Source: Dyella amyloliquefaciens (GTDB lineage: Bacteria > Pseudomonadota > Gammaproteobacteria > Xanthomonadales > Rhodanobacteraceae). From it: a DNA stretch of 64,000 nucleotides. The translations under genes were made by a program, and so were the position numbers. Below, piece after piece: positions 42,586 to 48,592 of this stretch. How positions within the stretch are numbered: the first letter of the stretch is position 1; each line of letters begins with the position of its first letter. The stretch lies in contig NZ_SAYT01000001.1 of NCBI RefSeq assembly GCF_004296575.1, positions 776,856-840,855 of the forward strand, read 5' to 3'. Under the pieces are notes generated by a model, which saw nothing but the letters and a program-made list of their open reading frames with translations, was not told the origin of the DNA and searched no databases.

Positions 42586-44400
42586 TCAGAACTTGCTGTG
42601 CTCCACATCGCGTTCGCGATGCATCAGGGTCCACTCGGCATGCTCGGTCAGGGCTGCGTCGCCCAGTGCGAGGAGGATTTCGCGTTGCTTGGCGGGATCG
42701 CTGGTGCGATCGAGCGCGGCGCGCGCGCTGGCGAAGATGCGTTGCATGAAGCGGTACTGGCGGATCAACTCCTTGTCGGCCTTGCGATACGCATAGGCCT
42801 CGCGCACGGCGGCGACGATGGAAAGTACCGCCATCATCATGACCATGGTGGTCTTGACGCTCTCGGGAAGATGCAGCGCGAATATCGCCAGGAACACGCT
42901 GATCGAGATGCCACCCCACAAGCTGATCATGCCGATGGTCTCGGTGACATGGTGCAGGCCGGTGCGCTCGATGGTCTTGCGCTGGAAGTAGTACAGCTGG
43001 CCGCTCTTGCCCGATTCGCCCACCCACTCGTCGATGACCTCGGATAACGCCGACGCGCGGGGAGTGTCGACGTTGGGCAAGGGATCGACGCCAGCCACGC
43101 GCATCATGTGGCGGATCCAGCCCAGCTCGATGTTCTGCTTCTGCAGGAAGTTGTCATGGGCGAATTCGTGTTCGCCTGTGGCCGATATGCCGGCATGGCG
43201 CCAGTAGGCTTGCACGCGCAGGCCTTCGGCGAGCGCCCGGTAATCAAGGTACTTGCGGTGCCAGCCGCGATGTCGCGCGAGTATCGCGATCAGGGCGCCG
43301 AGTCCAAACAGCAGCAGGAACGTATAGATGAGGAAGTCCTGTGCGGACATGTGCGCGTAGAAGGTGAAGGCAATGCCCATCAAGGCTGCCAGCACGTAGG
43401 TGAGCCTGAGCGCGAGCAAGACGCGCTTCTGGAAATGGATTGCCAGCCAGTCCGCCGCGCGGAAGATGCGCGCGAGTGCGCTGCCATTGGTGAGTATGCT
43501 GTCGGGATCGTCGTCCGGTTCTGCCGCGATGTCATCCGCATACTTCGTGCAGTCGGCGTTGAACTCCGACATGTGTGCGAACATCTGGCAGAACTCGGGT
43601 GGAGGCGTGCGATCGGTGGTGGTGAAGTCACCGCAGCGCCAGTATGTCTGCAGTGGTTGCAGGCCTGGCGCGACGTCGCCGTGGTCACCCTCGCGCGAAC
43701 AGACGATATGGTAGAGCAGGCGCTCATCGCCGCTGCCCAGGACGTGCCTGGCTTCGCGGTGACGCTCGACGAGGCCGGGCAAGGTGCCATTAAGATGGTA
43801 GTTGACGACCTGTGCCGTGCCTCCGAGCCGCCCCGAGTCCTTGCCGTCCCAGATGGCGAGCAGGATGTGGCAGTGACTGGCGATGAATACGCCTGCCTTG
43901 GCGTACTGCCGGTCGCGCGATGGTCCCGGCAAGGCGATCGCGTGATGCGATGGCCCGCGTGGCAACGGGAGTGTAAGCACGTGGGCCTGTTCGCACAGGG
44001 CCTCGAAGCGCGCGCGCGCGGAAGGAGCGGGAAAGTCGTCGAGATAGAGCTCTGCAGGTAGCGGCAAGGGGGCGATCAATCGTGCACCGGCTTCCAGGGC
44101 GACATGTGCGACCAGCTGGTCGCCGCCTTCGGCCAGCGCGGAGAGCACGCATAGCGGCAAGCCCGGGAATTCCTGTCGCAGCATCGCGAAGAACGCGGTC
44201 ACCCGCTCGCGTATGGGCTCGATCTCGGAGGCTGAGATGTTGCGGTGGCTGGTGATGCCGACGACCAGAGGCGTCATGGTGGCGCCGGGTTGTATCGCCG
44301 ACGCCGGATAACTTGTCTGGCCAGATGACGGGCCATGCATCGCAGGTGGGTTCATCGACACGTCCTGCGATTCCACATCCGAGTTGTCCCTGCGATGCAT
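42586..44400 (-). CDS. SLOG domain protein with four membrane helices (SLATT-like)
   Basis: A 604-residue protein. Residues 43-205 look like a SLOG/LOG-type Rossmann fold: PLVVGITSHRN, LCVLSALAEGGDQLVAHVAL, ARLIAPLPLP and HILLAIWDGKDSGRLGGTAQ. SLOG domains bind nucleotide signals in immunity proteins such as ThsA. After a linker come helices at about 328-348 and 355-374, followed by YLDYRALAEGLRVQAYW, the kind of motif that follows the helix pair in SLATT domains; a second helix pair (487-509, 516-534) is followed by a similar basic helix. SLATT proteins are predicted pore-forming effectors. The start at 44400 has AAGGAG five bases before it. It follows small gene D by 19 bp. Domain names are my reading, without a profile search. 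Confidence 0.72.
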   Translation of the reverse strand: MHRRDNSDVESQDVSMNPPAMHGPSSGQTSYPASAIQPGATMTPLVVGITSHRNISASEIEPIRERVTAFFAMLRQEFPGLPLCVLSALAEGGDQLVAHVALEAGARLIAPLPLPAELYLDDFPAPSARARFEALCEQAHVLTLPLPRGPSHHAIALPGPSRDRQYAKAGVFIASHCHILLAIWDGKDSGRLGGTAQVVNYHLNGTLPGLVERHREARHVLGSGDERLLYHIVCSREGDHGDVAPGLQPLQTYWRCGDFTTTDRTPPPEFCQMFAHMSEFNADCTKYADDIAAEPDDDPDSILTNGSALARIFRAADWLAIHFQKRVLLALRLTYVLAALMGIAFTFYAHMSAQDFLIYTFLLLFGLGALIAILARHRGWHRKYLDYRALAEGLRVQAYWRHAGISATGEHEFAHDNFLQKQNIELGWIRHMMRVAGVDPLPNVDTPRASALSEVIDEWVGESGKSGQLYYFQRKTIERTGLHHVTETIGMISLWGGISISVFLAIFALHLPESVKTTMVMMMAVLSIVAAVREAYAYRKADKELIRQYRFMQRIFASARAALDRTSDPAKQREILLALGDAALTEHAEWTLMHRERDVEHSKF

Positions 44401-44419
44401 GGCAGCTCCTTGCGGTCGG

Positions 44420-44803
44420 TCAGTTGTTCTTGATCGATGGGTTGGTGGCGGTTCCGACGCCGGTGGTGGCGATTGGATTGCTTTGATAGGTGTTGCCGCC
44501 AACAGCGACCGTCAATATGTAAAACCATTCACCCGTGGTGTTGCTGCTGTTGTTGAGGTCGGCCATGGCCATCGAATTTCTGGCCGGAGAAAATGTAGGC
44601 GCCCCAAAAATGCCGCTCCGTGGCGGAGTGCCGGCCCAGGTCAAGGACACGATGCTTCCCGTCGCGGCATTGCCGTTGAGGTGCCAGTCGACGCTCTGCA
44701 ATGCTTCGCTGCGCGCCACGTGATGGGCGTTGCCCGTCTGGTCGATATCGACGGTCCACGGATTCGTGCTCTCGTTCAGGGTCACTCTCAGGTTGTTGGC
44801 CAC
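44420..44803 (-). CDS. Small protein D with NPSIKNN tail
   Basis: A 127-residue protein of no known family. GTG start at 44801-44803 with GAGGAG six bases upstream; alignment with C sets the same start. It begins VANNLRVTLNESTNPWTVDI, then has WHLNG, SGIFG, MADLNN, TTGEWFY and ends TATNPSIKNN. These features recur in C (most similar) and A. No signal peptide or membrane helix. The composition (short strands, Asn/Thr/Gly turns) suggests a small beta-sandwich. It lies between C and the SLOG gene and is a tandem duplicate of C. Confidence 0.78.
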   Translation of the reverse strand: MANNLRVTLNESTNPWTVDIDQTGNAHHVARSEALQSVDWHLNGNAATGSIVSLTWAGTPPRSGIFGAPTFSPARNSMAMADLNNSSNTTGEWFYILTVAVGGNTYQSNPIATTGVGTATNPSIKNN

Positions 44804-44869
44804 AGTTTGCTCCTCATTTCCGGATGTAAAGGGACCCGTGTTAGGCAATGCTTCCAGGCGGAATGCTCG

Positions 44870-44923
44870 CTACTGCGGATCGCTCCTGGCTGGCGCTGCC
44901 GGCACGCGCTGCTGGAATGCGGT
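44870..44923 (-). pseudogene. Duplicated remnant of the TIR gene 3' end
   Basis: Read on the reverse strand this segment still encodes AFQQRVPAAPARSDPQ and a stop, against AFQQRLQAALARNDPQ and a stop at the true end of the TIR gene (45389). The DNA downstream (44820-44870) also matches the region after the TIR gene (45330-45388), including GGCGGAATGCTCG and ACTGCGGATCG. It is the scar of the tandem duplication that produced gene D. Confidence 0.8.
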
Positions 44924-45321
44924 CAGTTGTTCTTGATCGATGGGTTGGTGGCGGTTCCGGTGATGGCAACGGCGCCGCTGTAGTAAATGGTGCCGTTTGC
45001 GACGAGCTGGACCCCTATCTGGTAATACCATTCGCCCGTGGTGTTGCTGCCGTTGTTGAGGTCGCTGAGAGTCATCGATTTCCCGTTCGGAGCGATGACG
45101 AATGGCCCGAAAATGCCGGAGGGTGGCGGGTTGAACGTAGGTGGATCGTTGAGCCAGCTGCAGCTCACGATCCTTCCGGACGCCGCATTTTCTGTGAGCT
45201 GCCAGGTGATGGTCTGTTGGTTGTTGCCGCGTGGTACATGATTGGCATTGTCCTTCTGGCTGACATCCACGAGCCACGGGCTCGTGGTTTCGTCCAAAGT
45301 CACGGAAAGGTCGTTGGCCAT
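44923..45321 (-). CDS. Small protein C with NPSIKNN tail
   Basis: A 132-residue protein, closest relative of D: MANDLSVTLDETTSPWLVDV, then NANHVPRG, WQLTEN, SGIFGPF, MTLSDLNN, TTGEWYYQIGV and a final TATNPSIKNN. The start has GAGGA seven bases upstream. The last 39 bp of coding sequence are identical in C and D, pointing to recent duplication or gene conversion. No signal peptide. Function unknown; its place between the TIR and SLOG genes suggests it works with them. Confidence 0.8.
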   Translation of the reverse strand: MANDLSVTLDETTSPWLVDVSQKDNANHVPRGNNQQTITWQLTENAASGRIVSCSWLNDPPTFNPPPSGIFGPFVIAPNGKSMTLSDLNNGSNTTGEWYYQIGVQLVANGTIYYSGAVAITGTATNPSIKNN

Positions 45322-45388
45322 CGTCTGGTCCTCAAGTCAGGATGCGGAAGGAACCCTGTTGGGCAGCTACTACTGGGCGGAATGCTCG

Positions 45389-47578
45389 TTACTGCGGATC
45401 GTTCCTGGCGAGCGCCGCTTGCAGGCGCTGCTGGAACGCCGCATTGGCGGGGTAGTCGATGTCGTGCTGTTTGAGCGTGACGAGAAGATCGAGATCGCGG
45501 TAGCCCGAATCCCATAGCTGCTGCACCAGCGGTGCTGCTTCGGGGCCACGGCCGAGGCTGAGCAAGGTGTCGACGCGCAAGGCGATCAGGCGTGGATCAC
45601 CCGCGCCGCTGGAGACGGCGGTGACGTCCTTGAGCACGTCTTCGCGCCACTTGCTTGCCTTGTCGGCATCGTTGGTAGTGGCGGCGAGCAGCAGGCGTAC
45701 GGTTGCCGTGTCCAGCAGCAACGTGCGCTCTGCAGGCTGGTTTTCATGCAAGGGTGAAAGCACGGCAAGCGCCTTGGTGGCCTGGTCATGCGCCTGGTCG
45801 GGGTTGCTGGCGAGTGACTGATTCGCCTGTTCCACCTGCGCCTCGGCGAAGTCCTGCTGCCACTCTGTATTGCTCGGATCGGTGTGTGTCATGTCGCCGA
45901 AGATCTTCAGCGCGCGGTTGTTCAGTTCCGTCGCCGTGGCGTCGTCGCCGGATAGTCGGCGCAGTCGCGCAAGTTGTGTGGAATACAGCGCCACCTTTGC
46001 ATGGAAGCTCGTTTCGTTGGGCTCGAACTTTGCGAGCTCTATGGCTCCATCAACGGCTTGCTGGAGATGCTCGCTGCCCGCGTTGACATCGCCACCCAGC
46101 GCCATGGTTCGCCCGAGGATGGCGCGCACGCGCACCATGTTTTCCTTCTGGTCGTTGTTTTTAGGATCGCTCTCGCTCAGCGCGGTCTCGATCGCGTCGT
46201 CGGCACGGTATTCCGCGATAGCAGTGACAAGGTCGCCCTGCATCAGCGCCATCTTGCCGAGATTGTTGTGTGCTTCGCCCAGCAGCTCCTGCCAGTCCGT
46301 CTTGGGGTTCTTGCCGCGCACCAGCTCACGGCAGTGCGCAAGCATGCTCTGATACTGCGCGGTGGCTTGATCGAGCTTTCCCTGTGCCTCCAGCACGTGG
46401 CCAAGGTCGTCGTCCACGGTCGCCCATTGCTGGATGAATTCCTTGTCGGACGCGGAAGTCAGTGGAGTGCGCCGCAGGATGTTCTGCGCCATCGCGAATT
46501 GCTCCTCTGCCGAGGGAAGATTGCCGCGGTACCAGTCGGTCATGCCGATGAACGTGACGATGCGCGAGTAGGCCACCTGCCTGGCGACATCGGCGGGTGC
46601 ATGCTGCGCGAGCCCCCCGGAGATTTTCGCGGCGGCCTGATAGGACTGCATGGCGGTGTCGAGATGGCCCTGACTGAGACGCACACCACCGATCTTTTCC
46701 AGCGCCTTGGCGCGCTGCTCGAGCGAGACGTCGGTGACGTCGTCGCTCGGCAGTGACTGGAAATAAGCCATGGCGCGGTCATCGACGGCTTCCATGATGT
46801 CCAGCCGTTGCACCTGGCCCAGCTTGTCGTTGAGGTCGCCGAGCATGAAGCCGACCAGGCTTTCGGCCTGGTTGCGCTCGCGCTCCGCCACACGCTGCGC
46901 CTGGACGGCGATGACGGCGAGCGTCGATGTCATCAGGGTGATGGCGACGGCAACGGCGGCGATCGCTGCGAGCCGGCGCTGATGGCGTTGCTGCTCTCGT
47001 TGCTTGAGCTTGTCGAAACCGATGTCGAGCATCCCGGCAATCAGTTTCAGCTTGGCATTGGTCCTGCCGTCCTTGCCGGGACGCGCATCGGCCGCGATGG
47101 GTTCGGTGCGCTGCTCGGACAAACCATCGGAGCCATCCCATTCGAAGCGCAGCGCCCGTGCGAAACACTCTTCGGCTTCGCGTCCGGCGACCTCGCTGGT
47201 GTTGGGTTCACCGCCGACGATCAGGCAGAAAATGCGATCGGAATGCCCAAGCCGCTTGAACGCCAGCACTTCCTCGTTGACCCAGTGCGACCGGGCCGAC
47301 TGCGGGGAGCAGATCACGACCAGGTTGGCCGATTCGGACAGTGCTTCGTTGACCTTGCGGCCCAGGTCGGTCGCACTGGCCAACTCGTCGCGGTCGCGGA
47401 AGACCGGCAGCAGGCGCTTGGGCACTACGCCGGCAGGCGTGACCTGTCCGACCAGCCGTTGCGGAACCCGGTAGCTTTCCAATGAGCGGTGCAGCCAGTC
47501 GGCCCAGGCTTTGTCCTGGTGGCTGTAACTGATGAATGCGCGATACCGAAATGCCGGCACGCCGGATTCCTGCGCCAT
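45389..47578 (-). CDS. TIR domain - transmembrane - TPR protein
   Basis: A 729-residue protein. Residues 10-135 are a TIR domain: YRAFISYSHQDKAWADWLH, LLPVFRDRDELA, NLVVICSPQSARSHWVNEEV. E103 in WVNEEV aligns by eye with the catalytic glutamate of NAD-cleaving TIR domains (WVHKE in SARM1). A membrane helix lies at about 202-225, then a segment with LVGFMLGDLNDKLGQVQRLD, common in TIR/STAND-TPR proteins, then TPR-like helices to the C-terminus. It probably senses or scaffolds through TPRs and may produce an NAD-derived signal. The start at 47578 gives a compact N-terminus; GGAG is 11 bases upstream. It is separated from the small genes B (288 bp) and C (67 bp). Confidence 0.85.
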   Translation of the reverse strand: MAQESGVPAFRYRAFISYSHQDKAWADWLHRSLESYRVPQRLVGQVTPAGVVPKRLLPVFRDRDELASATDLGRKVNEALSESANLVVICSPQSARSHWVNEEVLAFKRLGHSDRIFCLIVGGEPNTSEVAGREAEECFARALRFEWDGSDGLSEQRTEPIAADARPGKDGRTNAKLKLIAGMLDIGFDKLKQREQQRHQRRLAAIAAVAVAITLMTSTLAVIAVQAQRVAERERNQAESLVGFMLGDLNDKLGQVQRLDIMEAVDDRAMAYFQSLPSDDVTDVSLEQRAKALEKIGGVRLSQGHLDTAMQSYQAAAKISGGLAQHAPADVARQVAYSRIVTFIGMTDWYRGNLPSAEEQFAMAQNILRRTPLTSASDKEFIQQWATVDDDLGHVLEAQGKLDQATAQYQSMLAHCRELVRGKNPKTDWQELLGEAHNNLGKMALMQGDLVTAIAEYRADDAIETALSESDPKNNDQKENMVRVRAILGRTMALGGDVNAGSEHLQQAVDGAIELAKFEPNETSFHAKVALYSTQLARLRRLSGDDATATELNNRALKIFGDMTHTDPSNTEWQQDFAEAQVEQANQSLASNPDQAHDQATKALAVLSPLHENQPAERTLLLDTATVRLLLAATTNDADKASKWREDVLKDVTAVSSGAGDPRLIALRVDTLLSLGRGPEAAPLVQQLWDSGYRDLDLLVTLKQHDIDYPANAAFQQRLQAALARNDPQ

Positions 47579-47866: not shown

Positions 47867-48052
47867 TCAGTTGTTCTTGATGCTGGGGTTGCGGGCCGGG
47901 TCCGCACCGGATGGCAGAGGCGGGGCCGGTGCGGGTGCCGGGGCCGGCGCGGGAGCGGGTGCGGGAGCAGGGGCTGGCGCCGGAGACTGTCCCATCGCAT
48001 AAGCAAAGCCCGGGTCGAGTGCCCATTGACCCTCGATGTCTATACGGTACAT
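47867..48052 (-). CDS. 61-residue Ala-Pro-rich peptide B with NPSIKNN tail
   Basis: A short protein: a 22-residue start MYRIDIEGQWALDPGFAYAM, a run of about eleven Ala-Pro pairs encoded by a near-hexameric DNA repeat (47922-47982), and a C-terminus GADPARNPSIKNN. GGGAGA lies six bases before the ATG. The tail is identical to those of C and D although the rest is unrelated, so the tail appears to be a portable element on a rigid Ala-Pro stalk. Coding status is supported by the tail, the ribosome site and position 30 bp after gene A. Confidence 0.68.
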   Translation of the reverse strand: MYRIDIEGQWALDPGFAYAMGQSPAPAPAPAPAPAPAPAPAPAPPLPSGADPARNPSIKNN

Positions 48053-48082: not shown

Positions 48083-48592
48083 TCAGCGATTCTTGATCGT
48101 TGGATTGGTGGCTGCTGAGATCCCGTAGCCGTCACCTGGGCCAGGGATGGGGCCGGCAATAGTGGAGCCGCGCGTGGTGGCCGCGAGCATGCGGCTGCTG
48201 CGCAATGGTTTGATGCGGGCAGGATAGGGCGGCTGGAAGCGGGTGCGATAGACCACGCCGTCAATCGTGGCGCTGAGCCGGTAGTACCAGGTGCCGACCT
48301 TCTCCTCGAAGTTGAATTGGTCTTCCAGGGTGATGGTCTGCCCGCGATCGCCGACCTTGGGCGGACCGAAGATGCCGGGGAATGGTGGGCTTATCCAAAG
48401 AAAGCCCGGTGATATCGCGTCGTCCATCGCATTGAAGTGACCGGACGTCCCATGGTGCTGCAGCTGCCAGCGGATGGGCTGGGGCCGGGGCATCCGCTTG
48501 AGTCGGGTGGTTTCCCTGGGGACATCTACATAGAGGTAGGGCGGCGTGCCTCGCGGCACGATCAACCTCACGGTAATGGCGTGTACGGTCAT
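48083..48592 (-). CDS. Small protein A with NPTIKNR tail
   Basis: A 169-residue protein, first gene of the group. AAGGAG lies six bases before the ATG. It has no signal peptide. Shared features with C and D are WQLQHHG, FPGIFGPP, TITLEDQF, VGTWYYRLSA and the tail AATNPTIKNR. It carries an insert of about 35 residues between the domain and the tail (PPYPARIKPLRSSRM and on). The N-terminus MTVHAITVRLIVPRG is strand-like. I find no known family. Its divergence from C and D shows that the domain family is older than the local duplication. Confidence 0.78.
   Translation of the reverse strand: MTVHAITVRLIVPRGTPPYLYVDVPRETTRLKRMPRPQPIRWQLQHHGTSGHFNAMDDAISPGFLWISPPFPGIFGPPKVGDRGQTITLEDQFNFEEKVGTWYYRLSATIDGVVYRTRFQPPYPARIKPLRSSRMLAATTRGSTIAGPIPGPGDGYGISAATNPTIKNR

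What the first reader, a model, noticed from the sequence alone, without database searches (positions are those of the whole stretch)
44420..45440. Tandem duplication of about 518 bp that copied the end of the TIR gene
Between C and D lies a fossil of the TIR 3' end, still readable as AFQQRVPAAPARSDPQ-stop against AFQQRLQAALARNDPQ-stop. The start codons of C and D are 518 bp apart and the two stop regions 519 bp apart. The last 39 bp of C and D are identical while the bodies have diverged. This dates gene amplification inside the cassette and suggests diversification of C and D with a constrained tail.
Basis: seen in the sequence. Interest (0 to 1): 0.72.

Follow-up and report, generated by a model that had tools for sequence, protein, structure and literature searches.

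The report
Tail-tagged twin genes beside TIR gene
A soil bacterium carries two diverged copies of a small protein gene beside a probable immune signalling gene, and relatives of that protein keep the same short tail, as if variable parts plugged into one common partner.

Summary
The duplication is real: the TIR gene's 3' end, the leader and one small gene were copied in tandem. The fossil matches 39 of 47 bases; the next best place in the window has 28. It occurs in 1 of 68 TIR loci scanned. It is not recent: C and D differ at synonymous sites as much as D and its counterpart in another Dyella (pS 0.45 and 0.45), and a tree rejects C+D as sisters (AU p 0.014).

The constrained tail is the larger finding. 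All 66 family members found end in P-x-[IV]-x-N, mostly NP[ST]IKN, over fast-changing Ig-like bodies. The same tail ends small proteins with unrelated bodies in these operons. A tagged gene lies within 1.3 kb downstream of 64 of 66 TIR-TM-TPR genes; 5 of 6 in loci fetched without using the tag.

I read C and D as duplicated sensors or adaptors whose exposed tail docks on a shared partner, most likely the TIR-TPR protein, in a Thoeris-like module with a SLOG/SLATT membrane protein. Docking is inferred, not shown; predicted topology speaks partly against it. Nothing like the tag was found in the paper library.

The parts
48083..48592 (-). gene E, 169 aa, distant Ig-like relative of C and D, ends NPTIKNR
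47867..48052 (-). gene F, 61 aa, Pro/Ala-rich, no body similarity to C/D, ends NPSIKNN
45389..47578 (-). TIR-TM-TPR protein, 729 aa; TIR_2 and ThsB_TIR above Pfam cut-offs; E103 after W99 invariant in 16 of 16; one hydrophobic segment at 205-223
44923..45321 (-). gene D, 132 aa, Ig-like beta-sandwich with flexible C-terminal tag NPSIKNN
44870..44916 (-). fossil of the TIR 3' end (39 of 47 identical)
44804..44869 (-). copied leader between fossil stop and C start (48 of 66 identical to the leader of D)
44420..44803 (-). gene C, 127 aa (GTG start; TTG at 44848 possible), ends NPSIKNN
44417..44456 (-). 40-nt tail identical to 44920-44959
44920..44959 (-). 40-nt tail identical to 44417-44456
42586..44400 (-). 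SLOG/SLATT membrane protein, 604 aa from the ATG at 44400 (core from 44277); DUF4231 above Pfam cut-off; N-terminal part of the model resembles YpsA/DprA

Best explanation
Shown: E-F-TIR-D-C-SLOG is a same-strand gene set with four genes ending in one C-terminal tag, and C arose with D by an old tandem duplication whose breakpoint lay in the last codons of the TIR gene. Inferred: the tag (P-x-I-x-N) is a docking peptide. It hangs free from a folded, fast-changing Ig-like body and is read by a constant partner of the same operon, most likely the TIR-TM-TPR protein (TPR arrays bind peptides in other systems; recalled). The bodies act as sensors or adaptors; a bound or changed body lets the TIR domain make a nucleotide signal from NAD, which the SLOG domain of the SLATT membrane protein reads, damaging the membrane or stopping growth. 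Duplicating a tagged gene adds a second body to the same receptor: the body may drift, the tail may not.
For: 66 of 66 family proteins keep P-x-[IV]-x-N near the end, with all four Pro codons and both Asn codons in use, so the peptide and not the DNA is kept; 45-sequence alignment: P and N of the tag invariant, median top-residue fraction of body columns 0.47. In 7 of 7 places where the match itself stopped short of the tail the tail was still there. Bodies of the Pro/Ala-rich, acidic, signal-peptide-like and L082/L163 tagged proteins show no BLASTP similarity at 1e-3 to those of C/D/E. Tagged gene within 1.3 kb downstream of 64 of 66 TIR-TPR genes; 14 of 15,906 other ORFs end so, 13 of them genes of these loci. 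In G012, which the family profile had missed, the TIR gene is followed by a tagged gene and the lone SLOG gene is not. Tail of the D model is disordered (residues 127-131 pLDDT under 50, body high). TIR Glu103 invariant in 16 of 16. SLOG fold, DUF4231.
Against: No binding is shown by any search. The TIR-TPR protein has one hydrophobic segment with the more positive side towards the TIR domain in 16 of 16, which puts the TPR part outside the cytoplasm, while 0 of 45 C/D-type proteins have a hydrophobic segment; only L129, L147/L148 and L188 have signal-peptide-like tagged proteins (judged by eye). Exceptions: L093 and the first TIR gene of L143 have no tagged gene; L063 has a tagged gene with no TIR or SLOG in the stretch and L070 none with TIR, though both genomes have a TIR-TPR elsewhere. 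Five more distant TIR proteins (L094-L098, 173-300 bits) have none. Most loci were fetched through the tagged family, so 64 of 66 is not an unbiased rate. No phage test exists.
Confidence: 0.42

Rival explanations
1. The tail is a self-cleavage site, as in the Shewanella protein SO1698 (DUF1888, now Pfam DP-EP): the beta-sandwich cuts before the Pro of the tail and perhaps forms an isopeptide link.
For: SO1698 is the best structural match of the D model (Z 10.8, rmsd 3.0, 108 aligned, 21% identity), its deposited mutants name S114, P115, D116, P117, Q118, D37, K98, Y26, so its Asp-Pro site lies at a like place near the C-terminus; self-cleavage there is recalled (paper not held). The residue before Pro is N or D in 57 of 66.
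Against: 9 of 66 have G, T, S, H or Q before the Pro. No Asp or Lys outside the tag is invariant among 45 members. The tail also ends proteins without this fold. No member hits DP-EP in Pfam at E up to 10.
Confidence: 0.1
2. The tail is an export or targeting signal for secretion or for a surface, read by machinery outside the operon.
For: Very different proteins share a short C-terminal signal; C/D-type proteins lack a signal peptide-like segment (0 of 45) and the TPR part is predicted outside.
Against: Some tagged proteins already have a signal-peptide-like N-terminus (L129, L147, L188). Six F0-negative Dyella genomes lack TIR and SLOG too, so the tag goes with this module.
Confidence: 0.17
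3. The tail is read by the SLOG/SLATT protein, or is a degradation tag that keeps an inhibitor short-lived; C and D are antitoxin-like brakes on the TIR protein.
For: SLOG gene present in 51 of 59 fetched stretches with C/D-type genes (counted); small gene directly after the effector gene.
Against: Tagged genes follow the TIR gene where no SLOG gene is near (L060, L064, L071) and the lone SLOG gene of G012 has no tagged gene.
Confidence: 0.17
4. C is not a duplicate that diverged here but an allele of another lineage joined in tandem by recombination; the shared tail served as the crossover site.
For: C+D rejected as sisters (AU p 0.0144); C and D have 0 of 9.8 synonymous differences in the last 13 codons while D differs from G006 and G008 there at 3 and 2.
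Against: C is not near any sampled species either (best 57% to L135) and its branch is long; the tail is short and codon bias is strong, so the identity is only mildly surprising (by hand, chance 0.003 to 0.05).
Confidence: 0.3

Closest known systems
Thoeris (ThsB TIR plus ThsA with SIR2-SLOG or TM-macro)
   Same: TIR signal maker with a separate SLOG-containing or membrane effector; TIR hits Pfam ThsB_TIR above cut-off. Passages on both ThsA types seen in PMC11204291.
   Different: Effector here joins SLOG to SLATT-type membrane helices, no SIR2 or macro hit in Pfam; TIR carries TM and TPR; extra tagged proteins. No Thoeris model hit in PADLOC.
SLOG/SLATT/TIR nucleotide-centred conflict systems (Burroughs et al. 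2015, cited in PMC7159879 passages)
   Same: TIR, SLOG and SLATT parts; SLATT predicted there to be a nucleotide-responsive pore former.
   Different: The passages seen describe no shared C-terminal tag on small beta proteins.
SO1698 / DUF1888 / Pfam DP-EP (PF08985)
   Same: Fold of the D model (Z 10.8) and a Pro-containing site near the C-terminus.
   Different: No sequence match; conserved catalytic residues not seen; tail shared with other folds.
PixA/AidA (4lzk) and MakD (6tct)
   Same: Similar beta-sandwich (Z 7.4 and 8.3).
   Different: No sequence match; fold resemblance alone at this Z is weak.
FxsA/FxSxx-COOH and other peptide-processing conflict systems (passage in PMC7159879)
   Same: Short C-terminal motif on small proteins beside TIR/TPR proteins.
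   Different: Other motif, AP-ATPase and processing enzymes; only a weak FxsC_Nterm hit (19.9 bits, cut-off 130).

Membership tests
Thoeris | TIR protein of ThsB type | tested here: met
   PF08937 ThsB_TIR 35.9 bits, cut-off 21.2; TIR_2 51.5, cut-off 28
Thoeris | ThsA effector with SIR2-SLOG or TM-macro | tested here: not met
   Pfam gives DUF4231/SLATT and no SIR2 or macro; SLOG fold by Foldseek, YpsA E 1.6e-3
Thoeris | phage-triggered nucleotide signal | not testable with these tools
   needs experiment
SLATT family | SLATT or DUF4231 domain above cut-off | tested here: met
   DUF4231 29.0 bits, cut-off 24.7; SLATT_3 23.6 is below its 26.3
SLOG superfamily | Rossmann-like SLOG fold | tested here: met
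   model residues 1-160 confident; best matches YpsA, DprA, ShosA, prob 1.00, E 1.6e-3 to 7.8e-3; none at 0.001 or better, and no Pfam SLOG hit
DP-EP (DUF1888) | Pfam DP-EP match | tested here: not met
   0 of 45 members at E up to 10
DP-EP (DUF1888) | beta-sandwich fold of SO1698 | tested here: met
   VIA-align Z 10.8, 108 aligned, rmsd 3.0; Foldseek itself ranks PD-1 first, E 8.9e-4
DP-EP (DUF1888) | catalytic Asp and Lys, scissile Asp-Pro | tested here: inconclusive
   no residue-level alignment to SO1698 was available; no invariant Asp/Lys outside the tag in 45; D before Pro in 5 of 66, N in 52
C/D family of this report | P-x-[IV]-x-N near the C-terminus | tested here: met
   66 of 66

The most novel reading that the evidence does not exclude
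A bacterial immune receptor with a constant tail and variable bodies: TIR-TPR takes in any protein that bears the P-x-I-x-N tail, so new sensors are added by duplicating or capturing a tagged gene, and the receptor and membrane effector stay fixed.
Probability: 0.27. Interest if true: 0.85.

Novelty: new variant of a known kind. Interest (0 to 1): 0.6.

Why it matters
If the tail is a docking code, these operons show how a bacterial TIR system could widen what it senses without changing its core, and the code gives a simple way to find its unknown sensors. The C/D pair is a case where drift of the body against a fixed tail can be measured within one genome.

Tried and rejected
Sequence searches of the family against Pfam, NCBIfam, PADLOC, PHROGs and PDB sequences gave nothing useful. 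DP-EP was sought in 229 and 79 genomes of the class: 0 of 229, and 1 of 79 below the cut-off (E 0.0066); no control genome rang, so absence is not shown. Family profile in the class: only the own genome, 1 of 369. TIR and SLOG profiles in viral contigs: no relatives among 6 and 90 pattern matches; SLOG in phages: none; D in plasmids: none; SLOG in plasmids: 9 records at about 30% over 28-29% of the query, beside TIR and caspase genes, and no strict tag was printed for those stretches. Viral Foldseek hits were weak (none at E 0.001 or better).

Recent duplication with fast divergence in place was rejected by pS and the AU test. C with D, G006 and G008 as one clade is not rejected (p 0.158). Autoproteolysis was kept as a rival only. 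Signal peptides and disorder of the second tagged proteins were judged by eye. Motif strings in papers gave 5 physics papers.

Full report
Setting. The window lies in contig 1 of a 4.83 Mb genome. Three of the genomes called 'same genus' have contigs of the same length as named records: Dyella sp. EPa41, Dyella jiangningensis SBZ 3-12 and Dyella solisilvae, so the host is most likely a Dyella. On the minus strand run E, F, TIR-TM-TPR, D, C and SLOG/SLATT.

Observation. The repeats, spacings and the readable TIR fossil are as described. The fossil scores 39 of 47; the next best place on either strand of the window scores 28. Of 68 TIR loci scanned, only this one has a second copy of its TIR end within 3 kb (37 of 45; next best 26). 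The junction follows D's stop as TGACCG then CATTCC, the first part as after the stop in the 5 relatives.

Age. Between C and D, pS is 0.45 and pN 0.32; D against G006: 0.45 and 0.15; TIR 0.49 and 0.10; SLOG 0.47 and 0.05. The fossil is 38 of 45 identical to the TIR end of the own genome and of G006 and G008, and 37 of 45 to that of G004. In the tree without the tag, D groups with G006 and G008 (99/98); C+D is rejected (AU p 0.0144), while C with D, G006 and G008 is not (p 0.158); C has a long branch. So the copy is about as old as the species, or C was brought in. The identical tail (0 of 9.8 synonymous differences against 2 to 3 for D with G004, G006 and G008) hints at local exchange, weakly.

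The tail. A pattern for NPxIKNx-stop gave 25 matches in 148 relatives and none for the reversed control; 2 of the 25 read TGG, not a stop. The profile A1 found the family in 55 of 233 genomes of the bacterial family. Of the loci fetched, 66 proteins were collected and 66 end in P-x-[IV]-x-N with 1 to 3 residues after it. A1 contains the tail and so could favour tailed proteins; but in 7 of 7 places where the match stopped short of it, the tail is present. All four Pro codons are used (35/14/14/3) and Asn is AAC 53, AAT 13. Besides C/D/E-type proteins the tail ends Pro/Ala-rich proteins (own F, G004, G006, G008), short acidic ones (L126, L128, L130, L135, L141 with L for I, L144, L147, L148), signal-peptide-like ones (L129, L147/L148, L188), more distant Ig-like ones ending DPEIHN (L054, L153, L186), and two of another kind ending DPTIRNNPVMK and DPRIRNRPV (L163, L082). 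BLASTP of bodies without tails links the DPEIHN type weakly to the family, and finds no link between the other kinds and C/D/E at 1e-3.

Association. 64 of 66 TIR-TPR genes (over 400 bits, over 600 bp held downstream) have a tagged ORF ending within 1.3 kb downstream; L093 and the first TIR gene of L143 do not. Elsewhere 14 of 15,906 ORFs end so, 13 of them genes of these loci. Most loci were fetched through the family. Of those fetched by TIR or SLOG alone, 5 of 6 are tagged (L082, L186, L187, L188, L189 yes; L093 no); five with weaker TIR similarity (L094-L098) are not. L082, from another family of the class, has TIR (37%), SLOG (45%) and a 171-aa tagged protein that A1 does not find. Six family-negative Dyella genomes lack TIR and SLOG; the seventh, G012, has both apart, with a tagged gene after TIR and none beside SLOG. 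SLOG is present in 51 of 59 stretches with family genes (from; some stretches end at contig ends).

Structure. D: pLDDT 88.6, tail disordered. Foldseek ranks Ig V-type domains first (PD-1, E 8.9e-4); VIA-align ranks SO1698 first (Z 10.8), then MakD 8.3, 4q52 8.0, PixA 7.4. The SLOG model is weaker (66.5), its N-terminal part good and nearest to YpsA and DprA. TIR-TPR has one hydrophobic segment at about 191-227 in 16 of 16 (one protein shows a further weak one in the TIR domain); the SLOG protein has four in its membrane part in 13 of 14 and three in one; the family has none in 45.

Reading. A fixed peptide on varied bodies, tied to one constant neighbour, is best explained as a docking tail. 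The TIR-TPR protein is the likeliest reader because tagged genes follow it even where no SLOG gene is near (L060, L064, L071). The topology forecast is against a simple version of this. The step from TIR to SLOG is by analogy with Thoeris (passages of PMC11204291) and with SLATT as predicted pore (passages of PMC7159879). The self-cleaving chemistry of SO1698 is recalled; its paper is not held.

Novelty. No paper with DUF1888/SO1698 in this context, with DUF4231 and TIR domain together, or with the motif strings was found (listings only); the library lacks most subscription papers.

Noticed in passing
44332-44346 and 44389-44403: A 15-nt perfect inverted repeat pairs over the likely start codon of the SLOG/SLATT gene (MFE -39.1, z -2.26, 5 of 200 shuffles as good). 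Arms of 15, 14 and 12 nt are present in G006, G008 and G004, with a paired change in G006; not in G007 and G019. Possible translational control.
   Followed up: partly
L069 and L137, about 655-664 bp after the TIR stop: Further ORFs end in STRDPTIINRTS and ATRDPTIINRTR, perhaps another tail variant.
   Followed up: no
L146, L153, L054, L162, L163: Two TIR-TPR genes in one locus, each with its own tagged gene downstream: whole TIR-tag units may be duplicated.
   Followed up: partly
L165-L168: Plasmid genes similar to the SLOG part lie beside TIR and caspase or DUF4231 genes in Rhizobium, Agrobacterium, Caballeronia and Novosphingobium.
   Followed up: partly
L129, L147/L148, L188: Small tagged proteins with a signal-peptide-like N-terminus and, in L129 and L147, a shared SNWFACAIGSQSCVS stretch.
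   Followed up: no
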